Origin: Tritrichomonas musculus
Taxonomy: Eukaryota; Parabasalia; Tritrichomonadida; Tritrichomonadidae
Direction of reading: 5' to 3'
DNA: 64,000 nt
Assembly (NCBI GenBank): GCA_039105265.1
Contig: JAPFFF010000022.1
Coordinates: 1,612,001-1,676,000 of the forward strand
Positions 29,648-61,185 of the stretch are shown here, in pieces. The notes under the pieces are model-generated. The model saw only the letters and a program-made list of their open reading frames with translations. It was not told where the DNA came from and searched no databases. The stretch's first letter is position 1. The number at the start of each line of letters is the position of its first letter. The translations under genes and the position numbers were made by a program.

Positions 29648-32600
29648 ATGACGAAGTTGTTGAGTAGACTATCGAAATCTGAGATTCTATCATTACCAGG
29701 GTTTGATAGATATGGATCACTCAAGATCAAAGAGTTGAAACCTATATTGAAGAAGAGTATCAAACAGATGAATATCGCTTTTAGAGGTGTACGTGTATCT
29801 GATTACGTTAATCGTTTCAATGAAATCAAACGTGAACAGAAACAGTCTGATGACGATCTATTCGAACGAATGTCGACAATGAAACATCAACAACAGAAAC
29901 AACATCAAAGTCATGAACAGTATAAACAGTCATTGAAAGATACAGCTATGTTCGAACGTTCATTGATGAATATGAGTGAACTCTATTCAGTTCCAAAACC
30001 AAGTGAATCTAAACTATTCATCGAATCGTTAATGAATGTCGATACTGAATATACGACAACCAAATCCGATGAACGACTCCGTTATGAAGAGAATGTTCAT
30101 GACAAAGATGAGTATCAAAACGAAATGAAGAGAATGATGATCGCTGTTAAGAATCATGAAACATTTGAAATCGATATCAATGATGATAGTGAGAAACAAT
30201 ACGCTTTCGTTCAAGTGTTACGACATATTCGTAAGATGAAATCATCTAAATGGAGACCTTACGTATTAGGTTTCGATATGGATGGACACGGTAGAGTGTT
30301 TCCATTAAATAAAGAGTCCGATCTCGAAACCATGATCCGATGTATCCTCGGTGAAATCACTGTAGAAGAATACTCTTCCGATTGTGATCCAAATTTAGTC
30401 GGTTGGGATTACATACCAGTTAGATTCGTTGTGAAGTTCATCGAAAAGAAGAAGAATGAAGAGACTGGAAAGACTGAGTTCATCGAAAAGGTTGATGGTG
30501 AAGAAGTAGTAGTTGAATCAGTTGATGACTTTCGTGACGCTTCAGATGGTGGATTCTTCCCATTCATCAACCTAATCAATGGTTTGGACTTGACTAGATA
30601 TCAAATATTCAACACCATTAACAAGAATAACTATCGTGATAACTGTTTCGTATACGCTTGTGTTCAATCAGGTGTGTTCAATGATGACGAACTTCATAAA
30701 CTTCGTTCAATAATGTTAACTCGATCGATACCAAACAAGAAGATATTGGAAATAGCTATTCAAATGAAGTGTCACTTCGTTGTATACAAATTTGATGATA
30801 AGAGAGATTCACGACATCAGAAACAACTCAGTGTTGATACTCGTAAGAATCCGAAAGTCATAGCTGATCGAAAGATTCAATTATTGTTATATAAAGAACA
30901 TTACATGATCGATATGAAAGAGATGATACCGATAACGAAGTTTTATATTAAATATCATGATGAGATTGATATGTTATATCCAAATATGAACATTCAACAA
31001 CGATTTCGTATTCGTGATATCAAAGATGATGATGATACTCCAAAATATAAACCAGATGATTGGACTGGAACTGAACTCACCACAGTTATTAAAACTATGT
31101 TCGAACATGGATGTTTCAGAGAGATCAATCAATGTGAACAGGGTATACTCGATACATGTGAGTTCGATAATCATTTGAATGACTACGTTAGTCTCAGTTA
31201 TGATGAAGAATCATGTTGTAGACTTGAATCGGCTGACACTAAGAAGATAACTGAATGGTCTCATATCTATTACGCTGATTACGAAACTGATGTAACTGTA
31301 TCTCCACATCGACCATATCTGATTTGTCTCTGTGATGACAAACATGTTGTACCATTCACTGGATCTAAACTCACGTCAACGTTCTTGATGTCACTCAAAA
31401 GTAATTCGTTAACGTACTTCCACAATCTGAAATACGACGCTTATTTCTTCATCCATGAACCAGATTGGGAGACACAGGTGACTCAACGAAGTGGAACTCT
31501 ATTACAAGTCGTTATGGACCATTATAAATGGATCAATGTTACCGATCCGAAAACGAAACAACCAGTTACGAAGAAGATTCGTGATAAACACTTAACATTC
31601 CGTAACAGCTATTCAATCATACCAGCTCCATTACGTGATTTCGATGACATGTTCAATCTAAAGGTTCATAAAGAGATAATCGCTTATCGAATCTATACTG
31701 AAAAGAATCTCAAACGAAAGACTATTCCATTCAGTGAATTCTATAATCAATACGTTAACGAAAACATCGATAAGAAATCCACTGACGAACTCGAAAAAGA
31801 TCGTGACCAATTGATTCGAAACGCTAAATTAGCTAAATCATACGATGAAACCAATAAAACAATCGATATCATGAAGTACGCTACGTTCTATTGTATCAAA
31901 GATTGTATTACGTTGATGGATGGGATGACGAAGTTCAATAACGATTTAGCTGAAGTGTTCACCAAAACCGATAAACCATGGATTGGTATTCATCAATTCA
32001 TATCTATCTCAGCTGTTGGTTATGATTTCGCTCGTATATATGGTTGTTTCGATGGATGTTATCTATTGAGTGGTAAACCACAGAACTTCATCCAACGTTG
32101 TGTCAGTGGTGGTCGTACAATGACAGCTAATAACGAAAAACAGTACATCGTTGATCGTATCCAAGACTTCGACGCTGTTAGTCTATATCCATCATCTATG
32201 TCAATTATGGATGGAGTCGCTAAAGGTAAACCAAAGGTGATTCCAGATGATTGTACTCATGAACAGTTAATGAGTTATGATACATTCTTTATCGAAGTCA
32301 ACATCAATAAATTATCGTGTAAGTCCAATCGTCCGTATAAGTTCGGTCATGTATTCAAACATAACGACAAAGGTTCGAAGATCTTCTGTAATGAAACAGT
32401 CGATCATTACTACGTTGATAAGATCACCTTGATGGATTTAATCGAATTCTATGATATTGATTACGAACTCATCCGTGGATACTATTTCGATGAAGGTTTC
32501 AACAAAAAGATCAATGAGTTCATCAAAACGTTATTCGATCTAAGATTGAAGTATAAGAATGAACATAATCCATTGGAGAAGACGATTAAACTGTTGTTGA

Positions 32601-33304
32601 ACTCCATCTACGGCAAATCAATATTGAAACCAATGAATGATGAAATCAAAGTCGTCAACAAGAAGAATCTTATATCATATATCTATCGTAACTATAACTT
32701 CATCAAAGAAGTATCATTCAATGATTCAACTAAATGTTTCGTTAAGAAGATCAAACCAATCAACAATCACTTCAATCTTCCACAGTTTGGAGCTTCTGTG
32801 TTATCGTGGAGTAAACACATCATGAATCAAGTGATGTCAACAGCTGAACAACATGGAATCGATATATACTATCAAGATACTGACTCGCTACACTTAAAAG
32901 AATGTGATGTTGATAGATTAGCTGAGATCTATAAAGAAAAGTATGGTCGTGATTTGATCGGTAAACAGATGACACAGTTTCATTGTGATTTCGATTCATT
33001 TCCAGGTGCTGTCGGTAATATTCATTCACGAAAGTTGATCGCTCTCGGTAAGAAATCATATCTCGATATACTCGAAGATGAAACCGGAAACACTGGTTAT
33101 CACATACGTATGAAGGGAGTTAGTCGACAGTGTATACTCAATAAGTGTAAACGAATGAATATCACAGTTGAAGAGTTATACGAACGATTATACAATGGTG
33201 AATCAATCACATTTGATCTCACTGATGGTTGTAACTGTTTTCGTAAGACGAAGTGTTTCCAACAAATCACATTACCACAGTTCTTACGTAAAGTTCAATT
33301 CTAA
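29648..33304 (+). CDS. polB: DNA polymerase B, protein-primed, of element B
   Basis: 1218 residues, intact. The N-terminal region includes a SAP-like helix pair (LSKSEILSLPGFDRYG) and an OTU-like segment starting DNCFVYACVQSG near residue 330. Exonuclease I is YADYETD (Asp544), exonuclease II TYFHNLKYDAYFF and exonuclease III YCIKDC. Polymerase motif A is FDAVSLYPSSM (Asp842), motif B LLLNSIYGKS (Asn985) and motif C YYQDTDSLHL (Asp1077), with a KGVSR segment near the end. This is the protein-primed family B polymerase typical of Polintons, which would copy the linear element from its ends. TTATTTTTTATTTATCGTAA precedes ATG. Confidence 0.93.
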   Translation: MTKLLSRLSKSEILSLPGFDRYGSLKIKELKPILKKSIKQMNIAFRGVRVSDYVNRFNEIKREQKQSDDDLFERMSTMKHQQQKQHQSHEQYKQSLKDTAMFERSLMNMSELYSVPKPSESKLFIESLMNVDTEYTTTKSDERLRYEENVHDKDEYQNEMKRMMIAVKNHETFEIDINDDSEKQYAFVQVLRHIRKMKSSKWRPYVLGFDMDGHGRVFPLNKESDLETMIRCILGEITVEEYSSDCDPNLVGWDYIPVRFVVKFIEKKKNEETGKTEFIEKVDGEEVVVESVDDFRDASDGGFFPFINLINGLDLTRYQIFNTINKNNYRDNCFVYACVQSGVFNDDELHKLRSIMLTRSIPNKKILEIAIQMKCHFVVYKFDDKRDSRHQKQLSVDTRKNPKVIADRKIQLLLYKEHYMIDMKEMIPITKFYIKYHDEIDMLYPNMNIQQRFRIRDIKDDDDTPKYKPDDWTGTELTTVIKTMFEHGCFREINQCEQGILDTCEFDNHLNDYVSLSYDEESCCRLESADTKKITEWSHIYYADYETDVTVSPHRPYLICLCDDKHVVPFTGSKLTSTFLMSLKSNSLTYFHNLKYDAYFFIHEPDWETQVTQRSGTLLQVVMDHYKWINVTDPKTKQPVTKKIRDKHLTFRNSYSIIPAPLRDFDDMFNLKVHKEIIAYRIYTEKNLKRKTIPFSEFYNQYVNENIDKKSTDELEKDRDQLIRNAKLAKSYDETNKTIDIMKYATFYCIKDCITLMDGMTKFNNDLAEVFTKTDKPWIGIHQFISISAVGYDFARIYGCFDGCYLLSGKPQNFIQRCVSGGRTMTANNEKQYIVDRIQDFDAVSLYPSSMSIMDGVAKGKPKVIPDDCTHEQLMSYDTFFIEVNINKLSCKSNRPYKFGHVFKHNDKGSKIFCNETVDHYYVDKITLMDLIEFYDIDYELIRGYYFDEGFNKKINEFIKTLFDLRLKYKNEHNPLEKTIKLLLNSIYGKSILKPMNDEIKVVNKKNLISYIYRNYNFIKEVSFNDSTKCFVKKIKPINNHFNLPQFGASVLSWSKHIMNQVMSTAEQHGIDIYYQDTDSLHLKECDVDRLAEIYKEKYGRDLIGKQMTQFHCDFDSFPGAVGNIHSRKLIALGKKSYLDILEDETGNTGYHIRMKGVSRQCILNKCKRMNITVEELYERLYNGESITFDLTDGCNCFRKTKCFQQITLPQFLRKVQF

Positions 33305-34018: not shown

Positions 34019-34253
34019 TATTTTTGATCAAAAAAGATGATCATCATCGAACAAAAACCAACTGTCTTCGTAGATGCGTCATGCATTCGATATGAGATGA
34101 TACGTACCCGGGATGATACCACCCCATAAAGAGAAACAATATGCATCTACTCGGTTGGGGAAGAGACTGGAAGTCTTTTCATTACGAGGATTACATTTGT
34201 CAACAAATGCTTCTGTGTTATCTATACCACAAGTAATAGTTTACCACAAGGTG
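34019..34253 (+). ncRNA. Candidate structured non-coding RNA of B, 5-prime part (interrupted by C)
   Basis: Starts at a TATTTTTG box (34019-34026). Stem P1: GTAGATGC (34070-34077) with GCATCTAC (34143-34150). P2: GGGATG (34110-34115) with CACCCC (34120-34125). P3: 9-bp hairpin 34160-34168/34172-34180. P4: CATTTG/CAAATG hairpin 34194-34209. A block CCACAAGTAATAG lies at 34228-34240. Element C has the same ordered features at 36386-36570, with compensatory changes in P1 and P2. No reading frame is conserved between copies. C inserted at AAGGTG (34248-34253), so the locus continues at 60057. Confidence 0.55.
34248..34253. repeat. Target site duplication of C, left copy
   Basis: AAGGTG immediately before the AGTAGT start of C; identical hexamer at 60057-60062 immediately after its end. 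Six-base duplication is the Polinton hallmark. The homologous uninterrupted sequence in C (36571-36576) contains one AAGGTG at the same place. Confidence 0.95.
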
Positions 34254-34353
34254 AGTAGTGATAGTGTATCAATAATCGGGACCAGATAAATCCCACCCAA
34301 AAACGCCTTTAAATGGCCCATATTTGGGCCCCATAAATTCCAAAAATGGCCCA
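34254..34353. repeat. Left TIR of C, 100 bp
   Basis: Identical over 100 bp to the inverse of 59957-60056. Starts AGTAGTGATAGTGTATCAAT. Identity stops after a CCAAAAATGGCCCA block. Confidence 0.97.
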
Positions 34354-34540
34354 TATTCGGGTCAATATTCAAAATCCACATACCGCATACTACCCCAAAA
34401 CGCTTATAAAACGCCCATATTCGGGCCCATACAAATTCCAAAAATAGGCCGCATATGGTCCACCTATGGCCCACCTATGGCCAACATATGGGACCACCTA
34501 TGGGACCACCTATAGCCCATACTGAATTCCAAAAATAACG
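34354..34540. repeat. Left subterminal repeats of C
   Basis: Short degenerate repeats: CCCATATTCGGG twice, then several copies of the type ATGGNCCACCTATGG up to about 34515. The right end has related ATAAGTGGNCCATAAG repeats (59930-59960). Probable binding sites for element proteins, or a replication-related array. Confidence 0.7.
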
Positions 34541-34578
34541 CGATTCTCAAACCAATTCGATTTTTTATCCAGTTAGAA

Positions 34579-34881
34579 ATGAATTCAGCAACAGCTGCCA
34601 TACCACAACTCTCCACTGTCGAAGCTAATGGTGTCAAACTCGATTACCTCGAACGCGTCATCCTCAAGAAATACCCCCAATGGAAATCCCTTGCATTCGA
34701 CTACCACAACGACGATGATTTCATGGACGATCTCATCGACACAATATCAAATTTCGAAACTGATTTGGAATCCCTTCGAGCCAAAATCATAGATGGTGAT
34801 AGCTATGATCGCAAGGAACTCGATTTGGGGCGTATCAAGATGCTATTGAAAATACTCGCATTCTCATATGAATATGCTTGA
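34579..34881 (+). CDS. Uncharacterised 100-residue protein of C
   Basis: Acidic, probably helical (FMDDLIDTISNFETDLESLR). First gene inside the left TIR. CGATTTTTTATCCAGTTAGAA precedes ATG. Not recognised; its location next to the KilA-N gene suggests an early or regulatory function, which is a guess. Confidence 0.55.
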   Translation: MNSATAAIPQLSTVEANGVKLDYLERVILKKYPQWKSLAFDYHNDDDFMDDLIDTISNFETDLESLRAKIIDGDSYDRKELDLGRIKMLLKILAFSYEYA

Positions 34882-34985
34882 GCATTTATGCATTCGCATT
34901 CCCATTATATATTTTTGGACTCAACTTCATATGAGGTAATAACTAGCTGGTTCGCAATGCAACTCAATTTTTTATCGAATTCCAA

Positions 34986-35759
34986 ATGGAATCAACTGGG
35001 TCAAATACACCAATGGCAGCTGTTATCGAACCAATCGATGATGAGTATGAATACATCCAATATAATGATAAGCTCCGTTTGATACATTCCATTAAGGATG
35101 ATATGTACCAGATGCAATCGATTCTCAATGCATGCAATTCCAAGAAGCAGGCTTATCGATGGAGGCAACTCGCTGAAACCAATGAAATACTCGATGAATT
35201 ATCGGCACAGCAAAATTGCTGTCCCGAGGATTTGGTGCAAAATCGAGTAAATATTGGTAATTCCCATTTGCAAGGTATATACATTCACCGACTACTGGTC
35301 AATGATGTTGCATGCTGGGCAAGTCGAAAGTATGCCATATATATTGCTCAGCTTTTGGATGCTCATTTTGAGAAGCAACGCGAGCAGATGAATAACAAAA
35401 TCAATGACCTCACTACAAGGGCTGTCCCCAAGGATCACAAAAATAGCTACCGATATATGATATGGCTTGAGGATCTCCCCAAAGATAAGGATTCTGTGGT
35501 ACTCCATCTTGTTCGTCGCAACAAGCATTCATGGAGGCAGGTCAGTAGGATATATCAAGATAAGAAGAAGCGCTGGATATTTATTGATGACCTACCCATC
35601 GCAATGACCCCGAATGAAGATATCAAGCGAATGGCCAAAGCTATGTTCAAAGGGGATGATGTCACTGTAGGTGGCACTAGGATTACCATCAAAAGATCAT
35701 GCCTTAATGATTTTCACACAGCTGTGGACAAATATTTCACAACCACAATGCAATCATAA
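34986..35759 (+). CDS. KilA-N domain protein
   Basis: 257 residues. Residues about 88-125 (QGIYIHRLLVNDVACWASRK then YAIYIAQLLDAHF) match the C-terminal half of KilA-N, a DNA-binding domain of phages, poxviruses and large DNA viruses. The C-terminal about 110 residues (YRYMIWLEDLP, LHLVRRNKHSWRQ) form a second domain of the kind often attached to viral KilA-N proteins. Likely a DNA-binding regulator. A palindromic CAGCAAAATTGCTG inside the coding region (about 35211-35224) also occurs in two non-coding spots of C. Confidence 0.75.
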   Translation: MESTGSNTPMAAVIEPIDDEYEYIQYNDKLRLIHSIKDDMYQMQSILNACNSKKQAYRWRQLAETNEILDELSAQQNCCPEDLVQNRVNIGNSHLQGIYIHRLLVNDVACWASRKYAIYIAQLLDAHFEKQREQMNNKINDLTTRAVPKDHKNSYRYMIWLEDLPKDKDSVVLHLVRRNKHSWRQVSRIYQDKKKRWIFIDDLPIAMTPNEDIKRMAKAMFKGDDVTVGGTRITIKRSCLNDFHTAVDKYFTTTMQS

Positions 35760-35816
35760 GTACATTCGAGTCAAAATCCCTGGAACAGTCGAAAATAATA
35801 TTTTATTTTTGCATAA

Positions 35817-36371
35817 ATGGATACTGGTACAGATATTGAAATGGATACTGGTACAGATACTGATACAGCTACTGGTACAGCAACTGATGCTGAGATACTC
35901 CTAAAGATCGTAGATGGTATCACCGATTTGCGCCGAGATGTCAAGCATTTGATTAAGCGTATGAACCATAAACGCAAACCATCTACTGATACCCCAAAGG
36001 CTGAAGCACATATCGACACCACTCAGGACACCACTCAGGATGCAAATGACTCACCTCCTGAGACTCCATCTATTGAACATCCTCGACCTCGTTTAAATCG
36101 CACCCATATATTCAATCGAAGCAAGTTCCTGGATATTGGGGATCACGACCGATTGATCCAATATGTCACATCACAGGCGGTAATCGATGCGATCTCCCAA
36201 GCAGAACCTCATAAACGTGTATCCCTATTGCGTAGACTCATACGCGATAACATAAAGTTGAGTATCTCCATGTATATGACCCAAAAACTAATCAACACCC
36301 ATATGCCTATAAACGGTCCCCCAAGGGAAACAGCTCCAGACCCAGATGAGATTGATACAACCGATTTCTAA
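35817..36371 (+). CDS. Uncharacterised protein with Thr/Asp-rich N-terminus
   Basis: 184 residues. The N-terminus is a repeat of DTGTD-type words encoded by a TACAGATACTG-like DNA repeat. The middle is disordered and Pro/Thr-rich; the C-terminal 80 residues are helical (YVTSQAVIDAISQAEPHKRV). ATTTTTGCATAA precedes ATG, the cleanest example of the box at 5-nt spacing. Not recognised. Confidence 0.55.
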   Translation: MDTGTDIEMDTGTDTDTATGTATDAEILLKIVDGITDLRRDVKHLIKRMNHKRKPSTDTPKAEAHIDTTQDTTQDANDSPPETPSIEHPRPRLNRTHIFNRSKFLDIGDHDRLIQYVTSQAVIDAISQAEPHKRVSLLRRLIRDNIKLSISMYMTQKLINTHMPINGPPRETAPDPDEIDTTDF

Positions 36372-36385
36372 CCGTAGTCCAAAAA

Positions 36386-36630
36386 TATTTTTGCAAAAAC
36401 CGACCCCATGATGGATGCGTAATGCATTCTCTAGAGGAACCAATATACGGACCCGGGATTGCACATCAATCCCTCAAGGAAAATACCTGCATCCACCATG
36501 AGGCTGGTTGGGGTTGCAAATGCCGGCAAATGCCCGTATTACCCCATAATCCACAAGTAATAGCTTACCCAAGGTGTTTAGTGCGCTTGGGCTCTATCAC
36601 AAATATGGACCGGAAATAATACGAAAAATC
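36386..36630 (+). ncRNA. Candidate structured non-coding RNA of C
   Basis: Second copy of the B locus. TATTTTTG box at 36386-36393. P1: TGGATGC (36412-36418) with GCATCCA (36489-36495). P2: GGGATT (36455-36460) with AATCCC (36468-36473). A GGTTGGGG word and CCACAAGTAATAG (36551-36563) follow, then AAGGTGTTTAGT and CTATCACAAATATG. Relative to B, an A-T pair in P1 became G-C and the closing pair of P2 changed G-C to T-A, so pairing is kept while sequence changes. It lies between 35817-36371 and PolB. No conserved reading frame. Confidence 0.55.
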
Positions 36631-36716
36631 GGTATGGCAGTGGATCGAACCTATGCCTGCCGCCGAAGCTGGGAGACATCCTTCTTGATCCAACAACTAT
36701 ACCAGTTAGCGCTAAC
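36631..36716 (-). ncRNA. tRNA-like segment with A-box, B-box and T-run (C copy)
   Basis: On the minus strand: palindrome GTTAGCGCTAAC (36705-36716) resembling a Pol III A-box TRGYNNA--GG, GGTATAG, then a B-box-like GGTTCGATCC and CCATACC pairing with GGTATAG, followed by TTTTT. The distance GGTATAG to CCATACC is 73 nt, tRNA-sized, but the T stem does not pair, so it is not a canonical tRNA. The B copy is at 60116-60189. Confidence 0.45.
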
Positions 36717-36819
36717 ACATATATGATTCCGATTTGCTATTTAATCGAATAAAATTCAAAAATAGTATGTCATCAACTGCGTTGCGATGATTATTTTTGT
36801 ATTTTTACCAATGGGGTAA

Positions 36820-45787: not shown

Positions 45788-45805
45788 TTAATATAAAATA
45801 AAGGT

Positions 45806-48800
45806 ATGCTTAGCCGTATTAGTAAGGAAGTCCAGGATCGCACAACCCGTGAGCTTCTTATTTATTTAAATTTACGTGAAGTACCAAATGGGCTCATCTA
45901 TAATATATTGTATGTCATCGATCATCCAAGATTCTTCAATGAAGAGGCAAAAGAAATACTCGATGAACTGAAAGTCATGTACGATTCATCTAGAAATGGT
46001 AAACCACCTTTAAATAGTGTTGTTAATGGTACTGCATCCAAGTTAAGAGATCTGAACCAATATTTGATTGACCCACAGTATAAAACCCCGGATCTCTCAG
46101 CCGAGGGGTTTTATAAGTTTTTATCCACTGAATTCAGCGCATCAGAGTTTGGCCTCCCTGATATATCATTTACCAACACCCCTACTATAACATTTGTCTT
46201 CCAGGGTATGATAGATGTCATCAAGAGGCCAGACATGTACGGCGATGAGATAAAACAGGTAATCAAGGAGATGTTTGAAGCTTGGGATAAATACTACTAT
46301 TATAAATCAGATGATGCTCACGAAAAAATTGTGAAGGAAAAGATTAAGCAGTATATCCCCATATTCAAAGATATTGAACCATATCTGGTACCTCAGCCGA
46401 TTAGAACTCTTAATGAGTATAATATCCAGGATCACGCAACCCGTGAGGTCATTAAGTTTTTATATAGTGAATGTGGTATATCAGATGAAGTCGTGAATAA
46501 TATTATACAAGTCCTCACTTATACAGAAGCATACACACCAGAGATAGTAAATGCGATCGATGAGATGAAACGCGCTTGGGAGTCTACCGACTTTAATAAT
46601 CCTAATCAGGTTGATCGTTTGAAGCAAAGTCTTATGAATTATGTCACGACTTACTTCAAAGATCCATATTCATATTTATTAGCCCAAGCGATTATTACTA
46701 GAGCCCAACACCCCACATACCGTAAGATCCTTGAGTTTTTATCTAGTAAATGCAAAGTGTCAGATGAAGAAATCCAAAAGTTGAAATGGGGTATCGAAAA
46801 TTCATATGCTTACAAAGTAGAAGGATTACGTATACTCAATGATCTGAAACGCGCTTGGGAGTCTACTGACTTTAATGATCCTAATCAGGTTAAACGTTTG
46901 AAGCATGAGCTTGGTACTCTCGCCTACGAGTTCTTCACAGATTCGGATTTTTATCTGGAGCCCCAAGAGATTATAAATATCGTTGGTAAAGCCAAGGACT
47001 CCACATATCGTGAGCTTCTTATGGCTTTACATGACGGCAATACACCAGATGAATTCATCACTAATATGGTACATGTCATCAATAATCCAGATTCGTATAA
47101 TGATGAGATACTAAATTTCCTCCAAAACTTGAGAAAAATGTTCTATGATTCCGAACCGATGAGTGCAATAATGCTTAATATGACCGATTTACGCATTAAT
47201 CTGAGCGCGACTAATATAACCGGTTTCTTCGCAAGTTATAATCTGAATAAATATTTGGAACACCAAGCGAAGTCCCTATCGAAACCCCAACCGAAGCCAT
47301 TAGGAGATATTCCAGGATCGGTACCCCAACCGAAGTCCAAAGCAAAGCCATTAGGAGATATTCCAGGATCGGAACCCAAGCAGGAACACCAAGCGAAGTC
47401 CCTATCGAAATCATTATGGAATATTCCTGAACCCGAATCTGGCCCGAACCGCGAATTCATTAAGTTTTATACATTTATACGTGTATATTTCAAAATACCA
47501 AATGCAGACATCACTAATATGAAACATGTCATCAATAATCCAGATGCGTATAATGAGGCGTTAGTAAATGAAGTGCGTAGCATGATAGATATTTGGAATA
47601 CATACGACGATAAGAAACTGGAGCGTGAAAAACTTAAAGCAAGTCTTAAACCTATTGTCGATACTTTCTTCAGAGACCTGCGTAAATATTTGGAACCCCA
47701 AGGAGATCCAAGCGAAGTCCCTATCGTGGAACCCCAAGCGAAGTCCAAAGCGAAGTCCAAAGCGGAACCCAAAGCGAAGCCATTAGGGGATATCCCAGGA
47801 CCGGAACCCCAACCGAAACCCCAATCGAAGTCCCAGTCGAAGTCCAAAGCAAAGCCATTGGCGGATATCCCAGGACCGGAACCCAAAGCGGAACCCATCA
47901 AAGAGGGTGATAGTATTGACGTCCAGCACCGTAAGCTTCTTGAGTATTTATCTAGTGAATGCGGAGTGTCAGATGATTGGATCACTAATATGACACATGT
48001 CATCAATAATCCAGAATTGTACGTCGATGCGATAGTAAATGCAATCGATAATATGAGGAAAGCTTATGCACGAACCCACTTAAATGATACTAGGTCAGTT
48101 ACAAGTTTGAAGAACCTCCTTAAGCAGAGCGCTTCAATGTATTTCAGAAATCCGAATAAATATTTGAAACCCCAACCGAAACCCGAAGTACCACCTCAAG
48201 CGAAGTCCCAGTCGAAGCCCAAACCGAAGTCCAAAGCGGAACCCAAAGTACCACCTCAAGCGAAGTCCCAGTCGAAGCCCAAACCGAAGTCCAAAGCGGA
48301 ACCCAAAGTACCACCTCAAGCGAAGTCCCAGTCGAAGCCCAAACCGAAGTCCAAAGCGGAACCCAAAGTACCATCCAAACAGGAACCCCAAGCGAAGCCA
48401 TTAGGGGATATCCCAGGATCGGTACCCCAACCGAAACCCCAACCGAAGTCCAAAGCGGAACCCATCGAAGTGGGGGATAGTATTGACGTCCAACACCGTA
48501 AGCTTCTTGAGTATTTATCTAGTGAATGCGGAGTGTCAGATGAAGTCATCAATAAATTAATACATGTCATCAATAATCCAAATTCGTACAATGATAAGAT
48601 ACTAAATGTGATCAAGGGGCTGAAACACAAATGGGAGATTATCACCAGTAAAGGTCATGATATTAACCCTGGTCGGGACCAATATTGGAAGCAACATATT
48701 ATGACTGATGTCACTACTTTCCTCAAAGAACTAGATCTATATTTGAATCCCCCACAGGAACCCCAAGGAGATCCAAGCGAAGTCCCTAGCGTGAAACCCA

Positions 48801-50965
48801 AACCGAAACCCCAAGCGAAGTCCCTACGGAAATCCCTACTGAAATCCCCAAAGAAGCCATTAGGGGATATTCCAGGATCGGAACCCTCAGGAGATCCAAG
48901 CGAAGACTCAAGTGATGATGATGATGATGATGATTATAGCGAAGTCAAGTACCCCAGATACCGTAAGCTCCTTAAGTTTTTATCGGTTGTATGCGATATA
49001 TCAAAATCGTTCATCAATAATATTATACAAGTCATCAATAATTCAGACTTGTACGACGAAGAGATAGTAAATGCAATCGATGAGATGAGGCAAAATTGGG
49101 TTAAAACAGACTTTCGTAGTAACGATCAGGTTGACGAGTTGAAGAAAAGGCTTACGATGTATGCCAAGAATTACTTCCAATATCCGAACCAATATTTGAA
49201 ACTCCAATCGATACCCCAAGCGAAGCCCAAAGGAGATCCAAGCGAAGTCCCTAGCAAAGTCCCTATCGTGGAACCATTAGCGGATATCCCTGAGATAGCA
49301 CCCAAAGGAGATCCAAGCGAAGTCCCTATCGTAGTACCCCCTGAGGAACCCTCGGAGATCCCATTAGGGGATATACCTGAGGAACCACATATCGAGGAGG
49401 AAGAGGAGGAACCGGAATTCAAAGCGACATCCCAATTGATATCTCAATCGATGACAAATATATCCCCTGAAATCGAGTATACAAATAATAACATTTTTTC
49501 TTCACCTAAAGAAACTATGTCAGAAGCACCATCCTTTATAGGATCTGATACACGTAGCAATTTAAATAGACTCGCGGCACCAGAAGTTGAAGATATTGGT
49601 GATTGGGGACATGATGAAAGAACATCAACATTCATAGAAGATCTAACTCAAGAAAACCCATTTGACGCTTCACAATTAGCAGCCGAATACCAAGCCAAAA
49701 GACGTGGAACCACGGGAATCCGAAAAGGCAAAGGTTATGAACAAGTACATGATGCGATGGGTAAGTTTAAAATACACAATTTATCAAAGGTTCATGACAC
49801 ATCCAAATACAAACGTGACTTCCTCGACTTAATCATTAATGGGAACTATCGAATTAAATATATTCCAGATGCAGCTCGAAGAGATACTGCACATGAATAC
49901 TGCAAGAATCATCTCGATGCTGATGGAATACCTTTATATAGATTACTACCAACAAACTCCTCAGACCCATTAGGCAATTCCATTACTGATCTTAATGGAG
50001 ACCAGGTTGATGATATTGTCCTTGTTGATAAACGTGGTAGTCCAGTCATTATAAATGGATATCAACTCGTTCAAGCATCACCATATAAGAAGGCTTGGGC
50101 TGCATCATACCCGACAAAGAGTGCTCGTAAACAGAACCCATTTAATGCGTGGTTGGCTGATATGTTCCAGAAATCACTTGATAAAGTTAATTGGGAAACT
50201 GGTGAGTATAATCTGGAGGCGAATGAGAGTATGAGTAATATGATTGATACTTATTCAAAGATTGGATTACCTAAACCCAGAATAAGTAAACGATTAACAC
50301 CAAATTCATATTGGGCATCTGTGTTCTCCCATATATGGAATTTCTTTTGGAATACCTTGTATAAGCCTGTTGGTCCACTCAGGAAATTAACAGATTATCT
50401 CAGTAGTGCTAATGCAATGTTTGCTACGCTATATGATCAACCAGCTCTACGTTCCATTGAAACTAGTAAGGGTCAGAAGATAGCTTATCCAGATTGGATC
50501 CTTTATAAGAAGGTCAATTCCGGGAAATATAATGTAGACGTTGGTGGAAAACTTCAAGATGATACTCAGAAAGTCATTCGTACACATATTAATTTCACTA
50601 CTAATGAAGCATCGATTAATGAGGAACACTGGACTGAACGTTTCCAAGTCATCCTGAATACACTCGCTCATATTGTATTCATACAAGGTATGAGGGTAGA
50701 CCCTAGTAGTGCAGAGCAAAAACAACATGAGCTGTTGCAAATGTTATATAATACTGCTGTTTATGGAGACAAGAAGCGTTTGAAGTATAATCGAGATAAG
50801 TACAAAAATAATCTCATCCAATTCCTGGATTCAGATGTTTATAAGAATAGGGGATATGCTGATTACAAGGAGACTAAAGCTCAATCAGCTGAAGTGGCTC
50901 GTAAAAATGCTGTAAAACAATACTTCATAGACGACTTTGAGCAATTAGAAGAAGCAGAAGAATAA
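45806..50965 (+). CDS. 1719-residue repeat protein, probable structural
   Basis: About nine repeats of roughly 45-100 residues with the consensus YRKLLEYLSSECGVSD, then HVINNPDSYNDEIVNAI, then a basic helix and YLEPQ. Repeats are joined by Lys/Pro-rich linkers containing KPLGDIPGSEPQ or KSKAEPKVPPQ. Three exact 60-bp DNA repeats lie at 48181-48360. The C-terminal about 480 residues form a different domain, with DLNGDQVDDIVLVDKRG (a Ca-binding-like loop) and a Trp-rich segment (SVFSHIWNFFWNTLY). No enzyme motif. Size and repeat nature suggest an internal virion or tape-measure type protein, or one binding host factors. Confidence 0.65.
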   Translation: MLSRISKEVQDRTTRELLIYLNLREVPNGLIYNILYVIDHPRFFNEEAKEILDELKVMYDSSRNGKPPLNSVVNGTASKLRDLNQYLIDPQYKTPDLSAEGFYKFLSTEFSASEFGLPDISFTNTPTITFVFQGMIDVIKRPDMYGDEIKQVIKEMFEAWDKYYYYKSDDAHEKIVKEKIKQYIPIFKDIEPYLVPQPIRTLNEYNIQDHATREVIKFLYSECGISDEVVNNIIQVLTYTEAYTPEIVNAIDEMKRAWESTDFNNPNQVDRLKQSLMNYVTTYFKDPYSYLLAQAIITRAQHPTYRKILEFLSSKCKVSDEEIQKLKWGIENSYAYKVEGLRILNDLKRAWESTDFNDPNQVKRLKHELGTLAYEFFTDSDFYLEPQEIINIVGKAKDSTYRELLMALHDGNTPDEFITNMVHVINNPDSYNDEILNFLQNLRKMFYDSEPMSAIMLNMTDLRINLSATNITGFFASYNLNKYLEHQAKSLSKPQPKPLGDIPGSVPQPKSKAKPLGDIPGSEPKQEHQAKSLSKSLWNIPEPESGPNREFIKFYTFIRVYFKIPNADITNMKHVINNPDAYNEALVNEVRSMIDIWNTYDDKKLEREKLKASLKPIVDTFFRDLRKYLEPQGDPSEVPIVEPQAKSKAKSKAEPKAKPLGDIPGPEPQPKPQSKSQSKSKAKPLADIPGPEPKAEPIKEGDSIDVQHRKLLEYLSSECGVSDDWITNMTHVINNPELYVDAIVNAIDNMRKAYARTHLNDTRSVTSLKNLLKQSASMYFRNPNKYLKPQPKPEVPPQAKSQSKPKPKSKAEPKVPPQAKSQSKPKPKSKAEPKVPPQAKSQSKPKPKSKAEPKVPSKQEPQAKPLGDIPGSVPQPKPQPKSKAEPIEVGDSIDVQHRKLLEYLSSECGVSDEVINKLIHVINNPNSYNDKILNVIKGLKHKWEIITSKGHDINPGRDQYWKQHIMTDVTTFLKELDLYLNPPQEPQGDPSEVPSVKPKPKPQAKSLRKSLLKSPKKPLGDIPGSEPSGDPSEDSSDDDDDDDYSEVKYPRYRKLLKFLSVVCDISKSFINNIIQVINNSDLYDEEIVNAIDEMRQNWVKTDFRSNDQVDELKKRLTMYAKNYFQYPNQYLKLQSIPQAKPKGDPSEVPSKVPIVEPLADIPEIAPKGDPSEVPIVVPPEEPSEIPLGDIPEEPHIEEEEEEPEFKATSQLISQSMTNISPEIEYTNNNIFSSPKETMSEAPSFIGSDTRSNLNRLAAPEVEDIGDWGHDERTSTFIEDLTQENPFDASQLAAEYQAKRRGTTGIRKGKGYEQVHDAMGKFKIHNLSKVHDTSKYKRDFLDLIINGNYRIKYIPDAARRDTAHEYCKNHLDADGIPLYRLLPTNSSDPLGNSITDLNGDQVDDIVLVDKRGSPVIINGYQLVQASPYKKAWAASYPTKSARKQNPFNAWLADMFQKSLDKVNWETGEYNLEANESMSNMIDTYSKIGLPKPRISKRLTPNSYWASVFSHIWNFFWNTLYKPVGPLRKLTDYLSSANAMFATLYDQPALRSIETSKGQKIAYPDWILYKKVNSGKYNVDVGGKLQDDTQKVIRTHINFTTNEASINEEHWTERFQVILNTLAHIVFIQGMRVDPSSAEQKQHELLQMLYNTAVYGDKKRLKYNRDKYKNNLIQFLDSDVYKNRGYADYKETKAQSAEVARKNAVKQYFIDDFEQLEEAEE

Positions 50966-55051: not shown

Positions 55052-55304
55052 TCAAACCTTGTCCAGTATGGATTTGCCTATATCATTAGCTTTGCTTACG
55101 TAATTGAGTCCAGTGCTGATGGTGTCTACAACTGGTCCAACACCTGGTATGAAGTCGGCGATTGGCTTGATCCTATTGATGATCCCCTTTCCAATATCAA
55201 CTGCCCTTGGGATGTTGCGGATGACAGTTTGAGCTGCATTCTTGAGCTTACTGCCGACGTTCTTGAAAGCGTTCTTAATCTTCTTGAAGATGCCAATACC
55301 CATT
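55052..55304 (-). CDS. Small amphipathic virion protein (pVI-like position)
   Basis: 83 residues from ATG 55304: MGIGIFKKIKNAFKNVG, then a basic amphipathic helix and a hydrophobic PGVGPVVDTISTGLNYV segment. Similar in start and composition to A1 8176-8574 and likewise adjacent (divergent, 46 bp) to the capsid gene. An N-terminal Gly suitable for myristoylation. It could be membrane-active, as adenoviral protein VI is; inference by analogy. Confidence 0.55.
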
Positions 55305-55350
55305 TGGTATATACAAAAATGTGATTTCAAGCTTTTTTCCAAGATACAAA

Positions 55351-57294
55351 ATGAGATACAGGAACGAAAGAGCTCACAATTTGAAATACGAGGTTGGGAA
55401 TGTCAATGACACATTCCAGAAGATGCGAAATATCATCAATGTGAATGATGGTACCAGAAGCTTCTCATTTAGAACTGTCGATTGCCATGACCAGCCAGCC
55501 CCATTTCACCAAGGCCAGTACTCACAGATTTCATTAACTCACCCCGACCACTTCATTAGCGATATCGACAAAGGCTTCCTCACATTCCACATCAAACTCG
55601 ATTTGCAATTGAACACCGATTTGGCCAAATTGCAACAGATTGATGATCCAAATAACTTCTATAAACTGTTTGTCGGATTTAAGTCCTCGAACCAATTATT
55701 CGACAGGCTCGAGATTCTCCATAACAATGTCAATGTCGGATATCAGCAAAATGAATGCATTCGCGAGGGCTTCCTATACTCGGTTTTGAAACCAGAGACT
55801 GAGAAGATGCGCCGCAGATTCGTTCACAGCTTATGGGAGAACATCAGCAATTACAGTCAAACTCATGCTGGCTCATACGTTAATCTCAATAGCTTCAAGG
55901 ATGGTGGTAAGACCACAACTGAATTCGACTTGAATGTACCATTTGATGACTTGCTTGCATTACAGGCATTCGACTTATTCCCCAACGGAATCATTGGTGA
56001 TTTATCCATTAGATTCCAAGTCAGTCCAGCTGGTCTTGTTTGGGCTGCCATTGACCCATATACGGTTGCTGAAGCCAAGGCATTCCTAGAAGATAATGAT
56101 ACCGTATCCCCAGAGGAACTCAAACAAATCAAAGCTCATGGACATCTCAAACACCAATTCACTCAAATCGGTAATGAGGCTATCATCCCAGGACCTGGTG
56201 ATAATCCAAATCCACCATCTCCCGAACCAACACCAACTAAATATCAATTGAAGTATGAAGTTAGAGAACAATATGTATCTGCATCTGGAGGTGATTTCGA
56301 TGATCTGATTGAAAATTGTTCATTAATCTTTGCATTTACAGATGAAGAGTTTACTGAACTTGGAATCGAAAAGACTGATGATAATAAAGCAATTTGCCAA
56401 GCTCATTATACCAAAGAACATGGTAAATTACCTCAACCATCACATGCAGGTCATGTCTACGTCAATTTCGTATCTAAAACCGAAGCTAATAAATTGATGA
56501 GTGCTCATTACTCATCACAACCAGCAACACTCACTGTTAACCGAATGACCATCACTCTCTGTAAGTCCAACATGCAAGGCTATGGTGTTTGTGAAGCCAC
56601 TCGTGCAAGCATTGAATCCATATTACGTGAGGGCCTAGTAATCCCATCTCAAAAGGTCGATTACCATGCATTCCCAATTGCAGCTGCCGCTAACGGAATC
56701 AAGTCTACATTGAATATCCCATTAATCAATGTCACAAGCATGTCATTGTTGTTCCCCAAGCATCACAATGATTTGACTGTATTTGAGAATCCGGTTTACC
56801 AAAACTGCTTTTTGAATATCGGTGGTAAGAACTTCCCAGATGAGAATGTCAGTACCATTGGCGCCAGATTCTTCGAAAGCCAATTAACAGCAGGAGACCT
56901 CGATGGTATCACACTCCAATGTTCAAAGGAATTCGAAGATAGCTTCACCATGCCCAAGAACGATGAAAACGGTGTTCGATATCGAAATACATTGAGTGAT
57001 GCCACATCATTTGTATTCAATGTCCAAACTGAACGTGCATCTGCTGGATACTGTTATGATGGCTTAGATGGTGGCAAAGGCAATATCCAAATTCAAGTCA
57101 ATGGTCAACCAATATTCACTGGTGATAATGATACGTATTACAAGATTATCGAACCAAGTGGAGCCATTGTTAGACCACCACCTGTACAACTCTGTTTATG
57201 CAGAGACACCTACTTCAAGCTCTCACTCGATGGCCTCGAATATATCGATGATGAATCACCAGCTGGCTCACAAGTTGATCCAGAAATGGCATAA
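55351..57294 (+). CDS. Major capsid protein, double jelly-roll, of C
   Basis: 647 residues from the ATG at 55351. The first jelly roll includes GFLTFHIKLDLQLNTDL and FDLNVPFDDLLALQAFDLFP, then GDLSIRFQVSP. A Pro-rich loop (GDNPNPPSPEPTPTK, residues about 290-305) separates an inserted domain. The second jelly roll contains LINVTSMSLLFPKH and a C-terminal PPPVQLCLCRDTYFKLSLDG. It is larger than the A1 version (558) through the insert. It would build the icosahedral shell together with the penton-like protein. Confidence 0.8.
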   Translation: MRYRNERAHNLKYEVGNVNDTFQKMRNIINVNDGTRSFSFRTVDCHDQPAPFHQGQYSQISLTHPDHFISDIDKGFLTFHIKLDLQLNTDLAKLQQIDDPNNFYKLFVGFKSSNQLFDRLEILHNNVNVGYQQNECIREGFLYSVLKPETEKMRRRFVHSLWENISNYSQTHAGSYVNLNSFKDGGKTTTEFDLNVPFDDLLALQAFDLFPNGIIGDLSIRFQVSPAGLVWAAIDPYTVAEAKAFLEDNDTVSPEELKQIKAHGHLKHQFTQIGNEAIIPGPGDNPNPPSPEPTPTKYQLKYEVREQYVSASGGDFDDLIENCSLIFAFTDEEFTELGIEKTDDNKAICQAHYTKEHGKLPQPSHAGHVYVNFVSKTEANKLMSAHYSSQPATLTVNRMTITLCKSNMQGYGVCEATRASIESILREGLVIPSQKVDYHAFPIAAAANGIKSTLNIPLINVTSMSLLFPKHHNDLTVFENPVYQNCFLNIGGKNFPDENVSTIGARFFESQLTAGDLDGITLQCSKEFEDSFTMPKNDENGVRYRNTLSDATSFVFNVQTERASAGYCYDGLDGGKGNIQIQVNGQPIFTGDNDTYYKIIEPSGAIVRPPPVQLCLCRDTYFKLSLDGLEYIDDESPAGSQVDPEMA

Positions 57295-59956: not shown

Positions 59957-60056
59957 TGGGCCATTTTTGGAATTTATGGGGCCCAAATATGGGCCATTTA
60001 AAGGCGTTTTTGGGTGGGATTTATCTGGTCCCGATTATTGATACACTATCACTACT
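59957..60056. repeat. Right TIR of C, 100 bp
   Basis: Exact inverse of 34254-34353; ends ACACTATCACTACT. Confidence 0.97.
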
Positions 60057-60062
60057 AAGGTG
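60057..60062. repeat. Target site duplication of C, right copy
   Basis: AAGGTG directly after the right TIR of C. Confidence 0.95.
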
Positions 60063-60115
60063 TTTAGTTCGCTAGGGTTCTATCACAAATATGATACAAA
60101 ATAACACAGAAAAGT

Positions 60116-60189
60116 GGCATAGCAGCGAATCGAACCAATGTTCCGGACCACCGATTCATGACTCTACCACTATACCCGTTAGCGCTAAC
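60116..60189 (-). ncRNA. tRNA-like segment with A-box, B-box and T-run (B copy)
   Basis: Minus strand: GTTAGCGCTAAC (60178-60189), GGGTATAGTGGTAGAG, B-box-like GGTTCGATTC, then CTATGCC, which pairs with GGTATAG over 7 bp, and a TTTT run. The two ends and the A/B boxes are shared with the C copy (36631-36716), but the middle is different and shorter by 12 nt. As in C, the T stem does not form, so a normal tRNA is unlikely. Confidence 0.45.
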
Positions 60190-60346: not shown

Positions 60347-60530
60347 CGGAATTTCCGTACTAGACATATCGTTAATGAAAACCACTGTTTTTGATACAAA
60401 ATGGACCATAAAACGAAGAATCTGCGAATCGTGATATCTATGTTGATTTCTATCGAAAATCCACTGTTTCGAACCTCTAAACGCTAGTGCGGAAATTTCC
60501 GCACTAGACATATCGTTAATGAAAACCACT
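60347..60530. repeat. Direct repeat with 24-bp perfect palindrome
   Basis: Copies at 60347-60386 and 60490-60530 share ACTAGACATATCGTTAATGA followed by AAACCACT. The second copy begins in a perfect 24-bp palindrome (60484-60507) centred on GGAAATTTCC; the first has a decayed version. It lies in the 425-bp gene-free stretch between the tRNA-like segment and the HNH gene. A dimeric protein binding site or replication signal is possible. Confidence 0.85.
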
Positions 60531-60615
60531 ATTTATACGACATTTCGACCATTATGTAACGTTCAACATAATTAACATCAAACTAGTTTGTATCTATTAT
60601 TTTATCGTAATTGAA

Positions 60616-61185
60616 ATGAGTTACGTGACACTACTTGATCATGAAGATTATGAGATCTTGAATGAATATCCATTAACGATTCGTCGTAAGAGAGATCAAT
60701 TTACACCAACCGAGTCATTCAATACAAATGGATATATACGAGTATGGTTGAATCATCAACCATATCTAAAACACATTTTAATATCTAAACAGTTCATACC
60801 AAACGATGATCCTACACATAAAACACAAGTCGATCATATCAATCACGATCGAACCGATTATCACATCGAGAACCTTCGATGGGTCAGTCCATCTGATAAC
60901 TGTCGAAACAAATCATCACATAGAGGTGTTGATTATGATTTCGTTGATGATATACCAGAAGATTCTATTGTTGTCGACTTTTATGATACACGAACTGGTC
61001 ATTACGAGTTCGATGACTACTATTTCTATGATGATGTATTCTATTTATACAATGGTATCAACTATCGAGTGTTATATGTAAACGAAACCAAATCCGGAAA
61101 CAAGTTTGTACATATGAATGACATTAACGGTAAGTCAGTTGGTGTATATTATTCGAAATTCAAACAACAACACGATTTAATATAA
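60616..61185 (+). CDS. NUMOD4-HNH endonuclease of B
   Basis: 189 residues. NUMOD4-like N-terminus (LDHEDYEILNEYPLTIRRKR), LKHILISKQFIPNDDP, then HNH core VDHINHDRTDYHIENLRWV and a DNCRNKS tail at about 95. The C-terminal 90 residues form a further strand-rich domain (VVDFYDTRTGHYEFDDYYFY) absent from the A1 homologue. Related to 13486-13797. The role could be homing or resolution of replication intermediates. TATTATTTTATCGTAATTGA precedes ATG. Confidence 0.85.
   Translation: MSYVTLLDHEDYEILNEYPLTIRRKRDQFTPTESFNTNGYIRVWLNHQPYLKHILISKQFIPNDDPTHKTQVDHINHDRTDYHIENLRWVSPSDNCRNKSSHRGVDYDFVDDIPEDSIVVDFYDTRTGHYEFDDYYFYDDVFYLYNGINYRVLYVNETKSGNKFVHMNDINGKSVGVYYSKFKQQHDLI

What the first reader, a model, noticed from the sequence alone, without database searches (positions are those of the whole stretch)
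34019..36630. Conserved structured non-coding locus shared by two different Polintons
B (34019-34253) and C (36386-36630) share an ordered set of features without a conserved reading frame: a TATTTTTG box, GATGCGT-ATGCATTC, ACCCGGGAT, a GCATC partner strand, GGTTGGGG, CCACAAGTAATAG and AAGGTGTTTAGT. Stem P1 pairs in both (GTAGATGC/GCATCTAC and TGGATGC/GCATCCA), with an A-T to G-C change on both strands. Stem P2 pairs as GGGATG/CACCCC and GGGATT/AATCCC, again changed on both sides. Conservation of pairing rather than sequence suggests an RNA made by the elements; no such RNA is known to me in Mavericks.
Basis: partly seen in the sequence, partly recalled or inferred. Interest (0 to 1): 0.88.

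Follow-up and report, generated by a model that had tools for sequence, protein, structure and literature searches.

The report
Structured RNA gene in Polinton elements
Large virus-like mobile elements in a mouse gut protist carry a previously undescribed, strongly folded RNA gene that looks built for the cell's tRNA-making polymerase, so these elements may make their own helper RNA much as adenoviruses do.

Summary
The shared locus is real and much larger than reported. It is an RNA gene of about 320-370 nt on the MINUS strand, antisense to its neighbours; copy C spans 36394-36716. Copy B is one gene split by C's element (34254-60056; TSD AAGGTG): 3' part 34052-34253, 5' part 60057-60189. The host is Tritrichomonas musculus. 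I examined 130 copies, some truncated; pattern counts suggest roughly 300. It has A-box-like and B-box-like sequences near the 5' end, three folded domains, and a final T5 run after a long closing helix. Pairing is conserved (92% of cells canonical against 82% in a tree-aware null, 0 of 300). Departures are G.U on the minus strand rather than A.C, which fixes the strand. A copy found afterwards (L173) keeps 78 of 93 pairs. No match in Rfam, ARAGORN or IMG/VR at the sensitivity used. The TATTTTTG "promoter" is on the wrong side and absent from 44 of 93 copies. Best reading: a Pol III-type element-encoded noncoding RNA. Its function is unproven; a decoy for the host's small-RNA or dsRNA machinery, as with adenovirus VA RNA, is the likeliest. 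Transcription has not been shown.

The parts
36394..36716 (-). RNA gene copy C, whole (about 320 nt), 5' end near 36716, 3' end at 36395-36399
   Evidence: alignment of full copies; positions
36730..36744 (-). conserved upstream element TTAAATAGCAAATCG (TATA-like)
   Evidence: TAAAT upstream in 88 of 89 unique copies with enough flank; positions
36705..36716 (-). 12-nt perfect palindrome GTTAGCGCTAAC at the 5' edge
   Evidence: in 80 of 99 unique copies (78, and 2 within a 14-nt palindrome); palindromy with other letters in GTCTGGCCAGAC and GTTAACGTTAAC
36690..36705 (-). A-box-like CTGGTATAGTTGTTGG
   Evidence: conserved GGTAYAGT in the copies; likeness to the A box is from a recalled consensus
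36642..36651 (-). B-box-like GGTTCGATCC
   Evidence: TTCGAT[TC] in 98 of 99 unique copies; B-box consensus recalled
36622..36631 (-). first T run (CGATTTTTCG) between domains I and II
   Evidence: 4, 5 or 6 T in 29, 68 and 1 of 98 unique copies
36535..36624 (-). domain II
   Evidence: covariance model R1, 105.1 bits, E 6.3e-25; pair counts
36489..36508 (-). closing helix III, 5' arm
   Evidence: native arm pairs beat swapped arms, 0 of 1000; positions
36400..36418 (-). closing helix III, 3' arm
36394..36401 (-). GGTTTTTG, Pol III-type terminator
   Evidence: last run is 5 T in 95 of 98 unique copies; no run above 4 T inside II-III in the 98
34052..34253 (-). RNA gene copy B, 3' part (domain III, half of domain II)
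60057..60189 (-). RNA gene copy B, 5' part (domain I and the other half of domain II)
   Evidence: weak model hit 60022-60109, 21.3 bits, E 0.014
34143..34158 (-). copy B helix III, 5' arm
34058..34077 (-). copy B helix III, 3' arm
60127..60136 (-). copy B B-box-like GGTTCGATTC
34248..34253 (.). target site duplication AAGGTG, left
60057..60062 (.). target site duplication AAGGTG, right
34254..34353 (.). left TIR of the nested element that holds copy C
   Evidence: 100% complementary to 59957-60056
59957..60056 (.). right TIR of the nested element

Best explanation
Several families of Polinton-type elements in Tritrichomonas musculus encode a structured noncoding RNA of about 320-370 nt. It lies antisense to its neighbouring genes; in the pPolB-bearing families examined it lies downstream of pPolB. 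Its layout is that of a type-2 Pol III gene: A-box-like and B-box-like sequences near the 5' end, then three folded domains, then a T5 run directly after a long closing helix. SHOWN: conserved position and orientation, conserved pairing, strand, absence of a conserved reading frame, and no match to a known family. INFERRED: that Pol III transcribes it (about 0.7), reading through a first T4-T5 run to the final T5 or making both a ~95-nt and a full-length product. FUNCTION (about 0.3, inference only): an abundant structured RNA that occupies host dsRNA or small-RNA machinery (a Dicer or PIWI-like Argonaute pathway) and so protects element expression, as adenovirus VA RNA does. The stated confidence is for 'an element-encoded structured RNA on this strand with Pol III architecture', not for the function.
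For: Copies: 245 exact 13-mers against 2 for the control; 96 of 100 examined places are the element, and all 34 more taken from other patterns hold it or part of it.
Pairing: 96 consensus pairs, 92.3% canonical against a tree-aware null of 82.1 +- 1.7, 0 of 300; both-changed cells 383 against mean 127, max 226. Slid partners give 33-43%. Helix III and IIa native arms beat swapped arms, 0 of 1000 each; helix I 11 of 1000. L173, not used to derive the structure, keeps 78 of 93 pairs against null mean 61.5, max 72 of 2000.
Strand: a strand-neutral alignment of 38 distinct arm pairs gives 551 Watson-Crick, 74 G.U, 11 A.C, 22 other, 17 gaps. Consensus energy is -114.5 against -73.5. Seven copies give z -2.7 to -9.2 on this strand against +0.4 to -3.6 on the other.
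Pol III layout: B box in 98 of 99, last run T5 in 95 of 98, no run above T4 within II-III; the 20 host tRNA genes looked at (19 Lys, 1 His) have a run of 5 or more T within 4 nt of the gene end.
Linkage: 20 of 29 listed pPolB places of 64-69% identity have a GTCTGGCCAGAC-class RNA 1.4-2.2 kb downstream, 20 of 20 antisense.
Small-RNA pathway in a relative: T. vaginalis has PIWI-like Argonautes, a Dicer ortholog and 34-nt RNAs on Mavericks (PMC7845603, passages).
Against: No transcript has been seen. The first T4-T5 run straight after domain I would stop Pol III if T5 is enough in this host, and the host tRNA genes suggest that it is; then domains II-III would not be made from this promoter. Domain I is no cloverleaf (ARAGORN none). 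The statistics rest on related, recombining copies. The single-pair G-test found 3 pairs above E<0.05, 1 of them canonical. On domain II alone, both-changed cells (24 against 9.0) and covariation score (0.137 against 0.101) beat all 500 shuffles, but the number of pairs with a change on both sides does not (3 against 2.0; 126 of 500), nor do further pair types (10 against 11.3; 500 of 500). The plus strand's own fold also passes the tree-aware test (91.7% against 80.1%), as a mirror of the same helices would. L173's both-changed pairs (6) reach but do not exceed the null maximum (mean 1.6, max 6). The small hairpin after domain II is not paired the same way in the family of copy C. The function has no direct test.
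Confidence: 0.72

Rival explanations
1. The transcript is only domain I: a tRNA-like RNA of about 95 nt that ends at the first T4-T5 run, while domains II-III belong to a second transcript or to a longer unit.
For: A T4-T6 run stands there in 98 of 98 unique copies although its flanks vary; the 20 host tRNA genes looked at have a T run straight after the gene; a host tRNA-His scores above the best of 300 shuffles against domain I in 4 of 6 copies tried, by 7.5, 6, 2.5 and 0.5 units.
Against: Domains II and III also keep their pairing and end in their own T5; I recognised no second promoter by eye; in 2 of the 6 copies the tRNA-His score is below the best shuffle.
Confidence: 0.15
2. The RNA serves the virion rather than the host interface: a packaging or assembly RNA, in the manner of the phi29 prohead RNA (recalled).
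For: It is element-encoded, present in families with different gene sets, and strongly structured. Polintons share protein-primed replication with phi29 (recalled).
Against: Nothing links the RNA to packaging: the window's ATPase-like protein matched none of the 37 five-kb loci. No Rfam match to any family.
Confidence: 0.12
3. A tRNA-derived SINE-like hitchhiker that once inserted in Polintons and was carried along.
For: A tRNA-like A and B box at the 5' end with an unrelated body is the SINE layout (recalled).
Against: Same place and orientation within families: 20 of 20 antisense 1.4-2.2 kb after pPolB in one class; 26 of 35 listed KilA-N places of at least 63% identity on C1-C10 have it within 2.5 kb downstream. 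It ends in T5, no A tail. Pairing is kept across copies.
Confidence: 0.07
4. One reading: an RNA read from the plus strand, starting after the TATTTTTG box.
For: The plus strand folds too and passes the tree-aware test; TATTTTTG is near in 49 of 93 unique copies.
Against: Departures from Watson-Crick pairs are G.U on minus 74 times and would be G.U on plus 11 times; weaker energies and z-scores on plus; box absent in 44 of 93.
Confidence: 0.04
5. A DNA-level element (origin, packaging or recombination site, or protein-binding palindromes) rather than an RNA.
For: A perfect 12-bp palindrome at the edge keeps its symmetry with changed letters in two classes.
Against: A DNA hairpin gives no reason for G.T on one strand only, and the asymmetry is strong. 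Promoter-like and terminator-like marks lie at the two ends.
Confidence: 0.06

Closest known systems
Adenovirus VA RNAI/II (PMC7589676, passages; PMC6599070, search listing with start of abstract)
   Same: Virus-encoded, Pol III-type with A-box-like and B-box-like sequences, strongly structured, several domains, 3' T run; works-like candidate
   Different: VA RNA is about 160 nt (recalled) against 320-370; box A lies in VA's terminal stem (PMC7589676), here the closing helix III lacks it; no Rfam match; whether this host has a PKR was not tested; transcription unproven
Noncoding RNA genes reported in Polinton-like viruses and virophages (tRNAs, group I introns and others; PMC12220804, passages)
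   Same: Noncoding RNA genes inside elements of this broad kind
   Different: Those were found with Rfam and ARAGORN; this RNA matches neither
tRNA genes of the host
   Same: A-box-like and B-box-like sequences; T run; B-box stretch GAGTTCGATTCTC shared with host tRNA-His in some copies
   Different: No cloverleaf; a long structured body follows; ARAGORN none
tRNA-derived SINEs (recalled)
   Same: tRNA-like head with unrelated body
   Different: Fixed place and orientation within elements, T5 end, conserved pairing
phi29 prohead RNA (recalled)
   Same: Small structured RNA encoded by a protein-primed dsDNA virus
   Different: No sequence or family match; no link to packaging found

Membership tests
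Adenovirus VA RNA | match to known family models | tested here: not met
   No Rfam gathering match in the window; low-threshold scans of parts of the window and 8 loci give only chance-level hits
Adenovirus VA RNA | internal A and B boxes and 3' T run | tested here: met
   By sequence only: B box in 98 of 99, T5 in 95 of 98 unique copies; A box by resemblance to a recalled consensus
Adenovirus VA RNA | length about 160 nt (recalled), box A within the terminal stem (PMC7589676, passages) | tested here: not met
   297-409 nt from 16 nt before the A box to the last T; closing helix III lacks the A box
Adenovirus VA RNA | inhibits PKR, feeds or blocks Dicer | not testable with these tools
   needs biochemistry
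tRNA | cloverleaf | tested here: not met
   ARAGORN 0 genes in the window and in 35 loci
tRNA-derived SINE | dispersed independent insertions | tested here: not met
   Fixed place and orientation in the families examined; an own target duplication was not searched for, and not every copy's surroundings were read
Group I intron or other Rfam family | covariance model match | tested here: not met
Polinton (element with copy B) | protein-primed DNA polymerase B | tested here: met
   window 29648-33304, PF03175, E 6.5e-28
Polinton (element with copy C) | TIRs and 6-bp target duplication | tested here: met
Polinton (element with copy C) | pPolB, integrase, ATPase, capsid | tested here: inconclusive
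   Of these none by Pfam; KilA-N only. A 668-aa ORF has 423 homologues among the candidates scored and a beta-rich model of low confidence, pLDDT 56.9; fold search not answered

The most novel reading that the evidence does not exclude
Polintons, the proposed kin of adenoviruses (recalled), make a VA-RNA-like Pol III RNA that blunts the host's small-RNA silencing of the elements; its closing helix has changed repeatedly while its shape was kept, as expected in an arms race.
Probability: 0.22. Interest if true: 0.92.

Novelty: new variant of a known kind. Interest (0 to 1): 0.74.

Why it matters
Virus-encoded Pol III RNAs such as VA RNA matter in animal virology, but the literature searches listed no report of such an RNA in Polintons or Mavericks. 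Those searches covered open-licence PMC texts only, and I read passages of five papers, not the listed papers in full. If transcribed, this would be an element-encoded RNA family, in hundreds of copies, in a group where Mavericks have swollen the genomes and where a relative makes 34-nt small RNAs that map to them. It gives a direct handle on how elements and silencing interact in parabasalids, and its covariance model can be used to look for the RNA in other trichomonads.

Tried and rejected
Plus-strand RNA starting at TATTTTTG: rejected on G.U asymmetry, energies and lack of conservation of the box. Conserved short protein: rejected. Known RNA family or true tRNA: no match. Relatives in IMG/VR by two DNA patterns and one protein: none. 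One prokaryotic contig (L049) with the 19-mer: chance-like, best blastn match 26 nt, no model hit. Antisense guide to the element's own genes: blastn of the stated B and C intervals (not of domain I) against the window gave, apart from the copies themselves, no match with E below 0.1. R-scape-like single-pair test: little power, 3 pairs, 1 canonical. TAAAT upstream as a host Pol III mark: in 88 of 89 RNA copies, but host tRNA genes only 8 of 20 against 4.4 shuffled (107 of 2000), so not convincing. tRNA-His origin of domain I: above the best of 300 shuffles in 4 of 6 copies (one by 0.5 only), below in 2. First link tests suggested that the RNA was absent from distant families (0 of 8 KilA-N places of 57% or less; 0 of 16 pPolB places of 82% or less; both lists are of scored candidates only, 148 of 611 and 83 of 1248). 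Fetching 7 of the 17 KilA-N places and 3 of those 16 pPolB places without a pattern hit showed that the patterns miss divergent copies: L164 (remnant cut by a TIR), L170 (relative in architecture), L172 and L173 have it; in L165-L169 and L171 none was recognised. Nine of 29 pPolB places of 64-69% identity have no hit to the third pattern either and were not read. Confirming element C's capsid by structure: low-confidence model, fold search unanswered. 18S identification of the host did not complete; the host name comes from contig lengths in protein records.

Rows dropped: L024, L039, L045 and L087 carry the 13-mer but are not the element. L046, L065, L073, L085, L088, L137, L144, L150, L153 and L155 are truncated or rearranged, or lack a part my extraction required, and were left out of the 120 full copies. 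One search aligned 46 of the 81 unique copies; one search used 27 of 32 unique domain II pieces.
Full report
WHERE WE ARE. Matches to the window's polymerase lie on Tritrichomonas musculus contigs of 11,419,247, 6,594,767 and 9,756,398 bases (P0017, P0043, P0071). These are the lengths of contigs C1, C6 and C2 of the window's assembly, so the host is T. musculus. The window holds an element with pPolB (29648-33304) that carries copy B. It is cut by a nested element at 34254-60056 with 100-bp TIRs and the 6-bp duplication AAGGTG, which carries copy C next to a KilA-N gene. The nested element shows no pPolB, integrase or ATPase among its Pfam-scanned ORFs, so it is Polinton-like by ends and company.

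THE OBSERVATION. The motifs are as described, and B and C are alike beyond chance. A 13-mer of the locus occurs 245 times in 193 Mb against 2 for its reversal. I fetched 100 such places (92 from the first 100 listed, 8 from a DNA search): 96 are the element, 4 are not (L024, L039, L045, L087). A further 34 places from other patterns were fetched and all hold it or part of it. With 245 13-mers, others found only by the 20-mer or the palindrome, and 45 of a GTCTGGCCAGAC class, the total is near 300. This is an estimate: patterns miss divergent copies and a few hits are not copies.

STRAND AND EXTENT. Folding favours the minus strand. In a strand-neutral alignment of 38 distinct arm pairs of the closing helix, which scores only Watson-Crick matches, there are 551 Watson-Crick, 74 G.U, 11 A.C, 22 other and 17 gapped positions as read on minus. 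Over the consensus pairs G.U to A.C is 1776 to 205, although that structure was derived with G.U allowed. MFE z-scores are -2.7 to -9.2 on minus and +0.4 to -3.6 on plus in 7 copies (60 shuffles each). Read on minus, the gene runs from a conserved upstream TAAAT element (88 of 89 copies) and a palindrome through A-box-like and B-box-like sequences to GGTTTTTG.

STRUCTURE. Domain I: a long stem holding both boxes, with a C(UUCG)G tip in many copies. Domain II: about 90 nt, stems IIa-IId. Domain III: a closing helix of up to about 20 bp with an apical hairpin, abutting the last T run. In domain II, pairs 3-95 and 6-92 change together without exception in 27 sequences. On domain II alone 24 cells are changed on both sides against 9.0 shuffled (0 of 500), but the number of such pairs is not unusual (3 against 2.0, 126 of 500). 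Helix III takes several different sequences that stay complementary, if with some mismatches; native arms beat swapped arms 0 of 1000 in helices III and IIa, and 11 of 1000 in I. Tree-aware test on 99 unique copies, 300 simulations: 92.3% canonical against 82.1 +- 1.7, both-changed 383 against 127 (max 226). Against my reading: the single-pair APC test gives only 3 pairs over E<0.05, 1 canonical; the plus strand's own fold also passes (91.7% against 80.1%), as a mirror of the same helices would; and copies recombine by domain (L018 joins a domain II like that of copy C to domains I and III like those of L009), so events are fewer than cells.

AN OUT-OF-SAMPLE CHECK. pPolB places of 82% identity or less seemed to lack the RNA (0 of 16). 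I fetched the stretch downstream of three: two hold a divergent copy (L172 cut by the piece; L173 whole, nearest L130 at 79% in the kept columns), one none that I recognised (L171). L173 keeps 78 of 93 pairs of the structure derived without it, against null mean 61.5, max 72 of 2000; its pairs changed on both sides, 6, equal the null maximum (mean 1.6). It scores 68.4 bits, E 3.4e-16 with the domain II model. A pattern from its 5' edge then found 45 copies against 0 controls. Twenty of 29 listed pPolB places of 64-69% identity have one 1.4-2.2 kb downstream, and all 20 are antisense; nine have none by this pattern. L170, beside a KilA-N of 54% identity, shows a B box, a T run and a wholly different 16-bp closing helix ending in GGGTTTTTG. 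That arm occurs 172 times in the genome, in the listed part mostly as two direct arms and one inverted. I take L170 as a relative in architecture, not proven by sequence.

CONTEXT. Of 37 five-kb loci, 27 match proteins of the window's elements and 10 do not; one of these ten has a DEAD-box helicase upstream (L018). Twenty-six of 35 listed KilA-N places of at least 63% identity on C1-C10 have a pattern-found RNA within 2.5 kb downstream, 0 of 8 of 57% or less. These 26 are 26 of the 83 RNA places on C1-C10; the others lie elsewhere, in part beside pPolB. For pPolB of at least 84% it is 6 of 7 within 5 kb. The RNA thus goes with certain families, at a fixed place and antisense.

MECHANISM. The layout (A and B box, structured body, T5 end) points to Pol III; 20 host tRNA genes looked at, 19 of them Lys, have a T run at their end. 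The T4-T6 run after domain I in 98 of 98 copies is the main difficulty: it may stop the polymerase and give a ~95-nt product. For function, I lean to a decoy for host dsRNA or small-RNA machinery. A relative, T. vaginalis, has PIWI-like Argonautes, a Dicer ortholog and 34-nt small RNAs; its small-RNA reads cover for example 3,188 of 3,551 Maverick integrase and 2,546 of 3,183 KilA-N genes (PMC7845603, passages). VA RNA acts as a decoy for Dicer (PMC7589676, passages). Changing letters with kept shape in the closing helix fits a decoy better than a guide. None of this is tested.

KNOWN OR NEW. There is no match among 4227 Rfam families, by ARAGORN or, with the patterns and protein tried, in IMG/VR. 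Polinton-like viruses are reported to hold tRNAs, group I introns and other Rfam classes (PMC12220804, passages). A survey of integrated viruses of protists has no 'non-coding' in its main text (PMC10120064, passages), and a paper on T. vaginalis noncoding transcripts has no 'Maverick' (PMC4223856, passages). My literature searches listed no such RNA in Polintons, within open-licence PMC. It works like, at most, VA RNA; it is not a member of that family by the tests made here.

Noticed in passing
L013, L054, L076, L097 (domain I tip); L017, L030, L101 (domain III tip); gene downstream of the RNA in L009: Tiny double-hairpin inserts of about 26-29 nt (TTTGCNNNGCAAA-like next to GTCC...GGAC-like), sitting in loops of the RNA and, as about 27 nt in one gene start, also in what looks like coding sequence. 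TTTGCNNNGCAAACTCC occurs 67 times in the genome against 0 for the reversed control, several of them beside copies of the RNA gene.
   Followed up: partly
window 34254 (copy B); L065, L085, L164: RNA genes interrupted by element ends beginning AGTAGT; two of them (L065, L164) at the same AGGGAT site. Polintons may insert into each other's RNA genes, but no rate was compared.
   Followed up: partly
5' edge of the RNA gene, window 36705-36716: A 12-bp perfect palindrome whose symmetry is kept with different letters (GTTAGCGCTAAC, GTCTGGCCAGAC, GTTAACGTTAAC); could be a protein-binding site or a hairpin.
   Followed up: no
window 55288-57294: 668-aa ORF whose shorter relatives (539 aa, 51-53% identity in two blocks) are frequent in metagenome contigs (one cluster stands for 318 contigs); beta-rich, possibly a capsid protein.
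   Followed up: partly
window 60523-61185: HNH endonuclease gene (PF13392) directly after the RNA gene in the element with copy B; a relative lies near the RNA in 4 of 37 five-kb loci.
   Followed up: no
window 45797-50965: Long repeat-rich 1722-aa ORF with many degenerate repeats.
   Followed up: no
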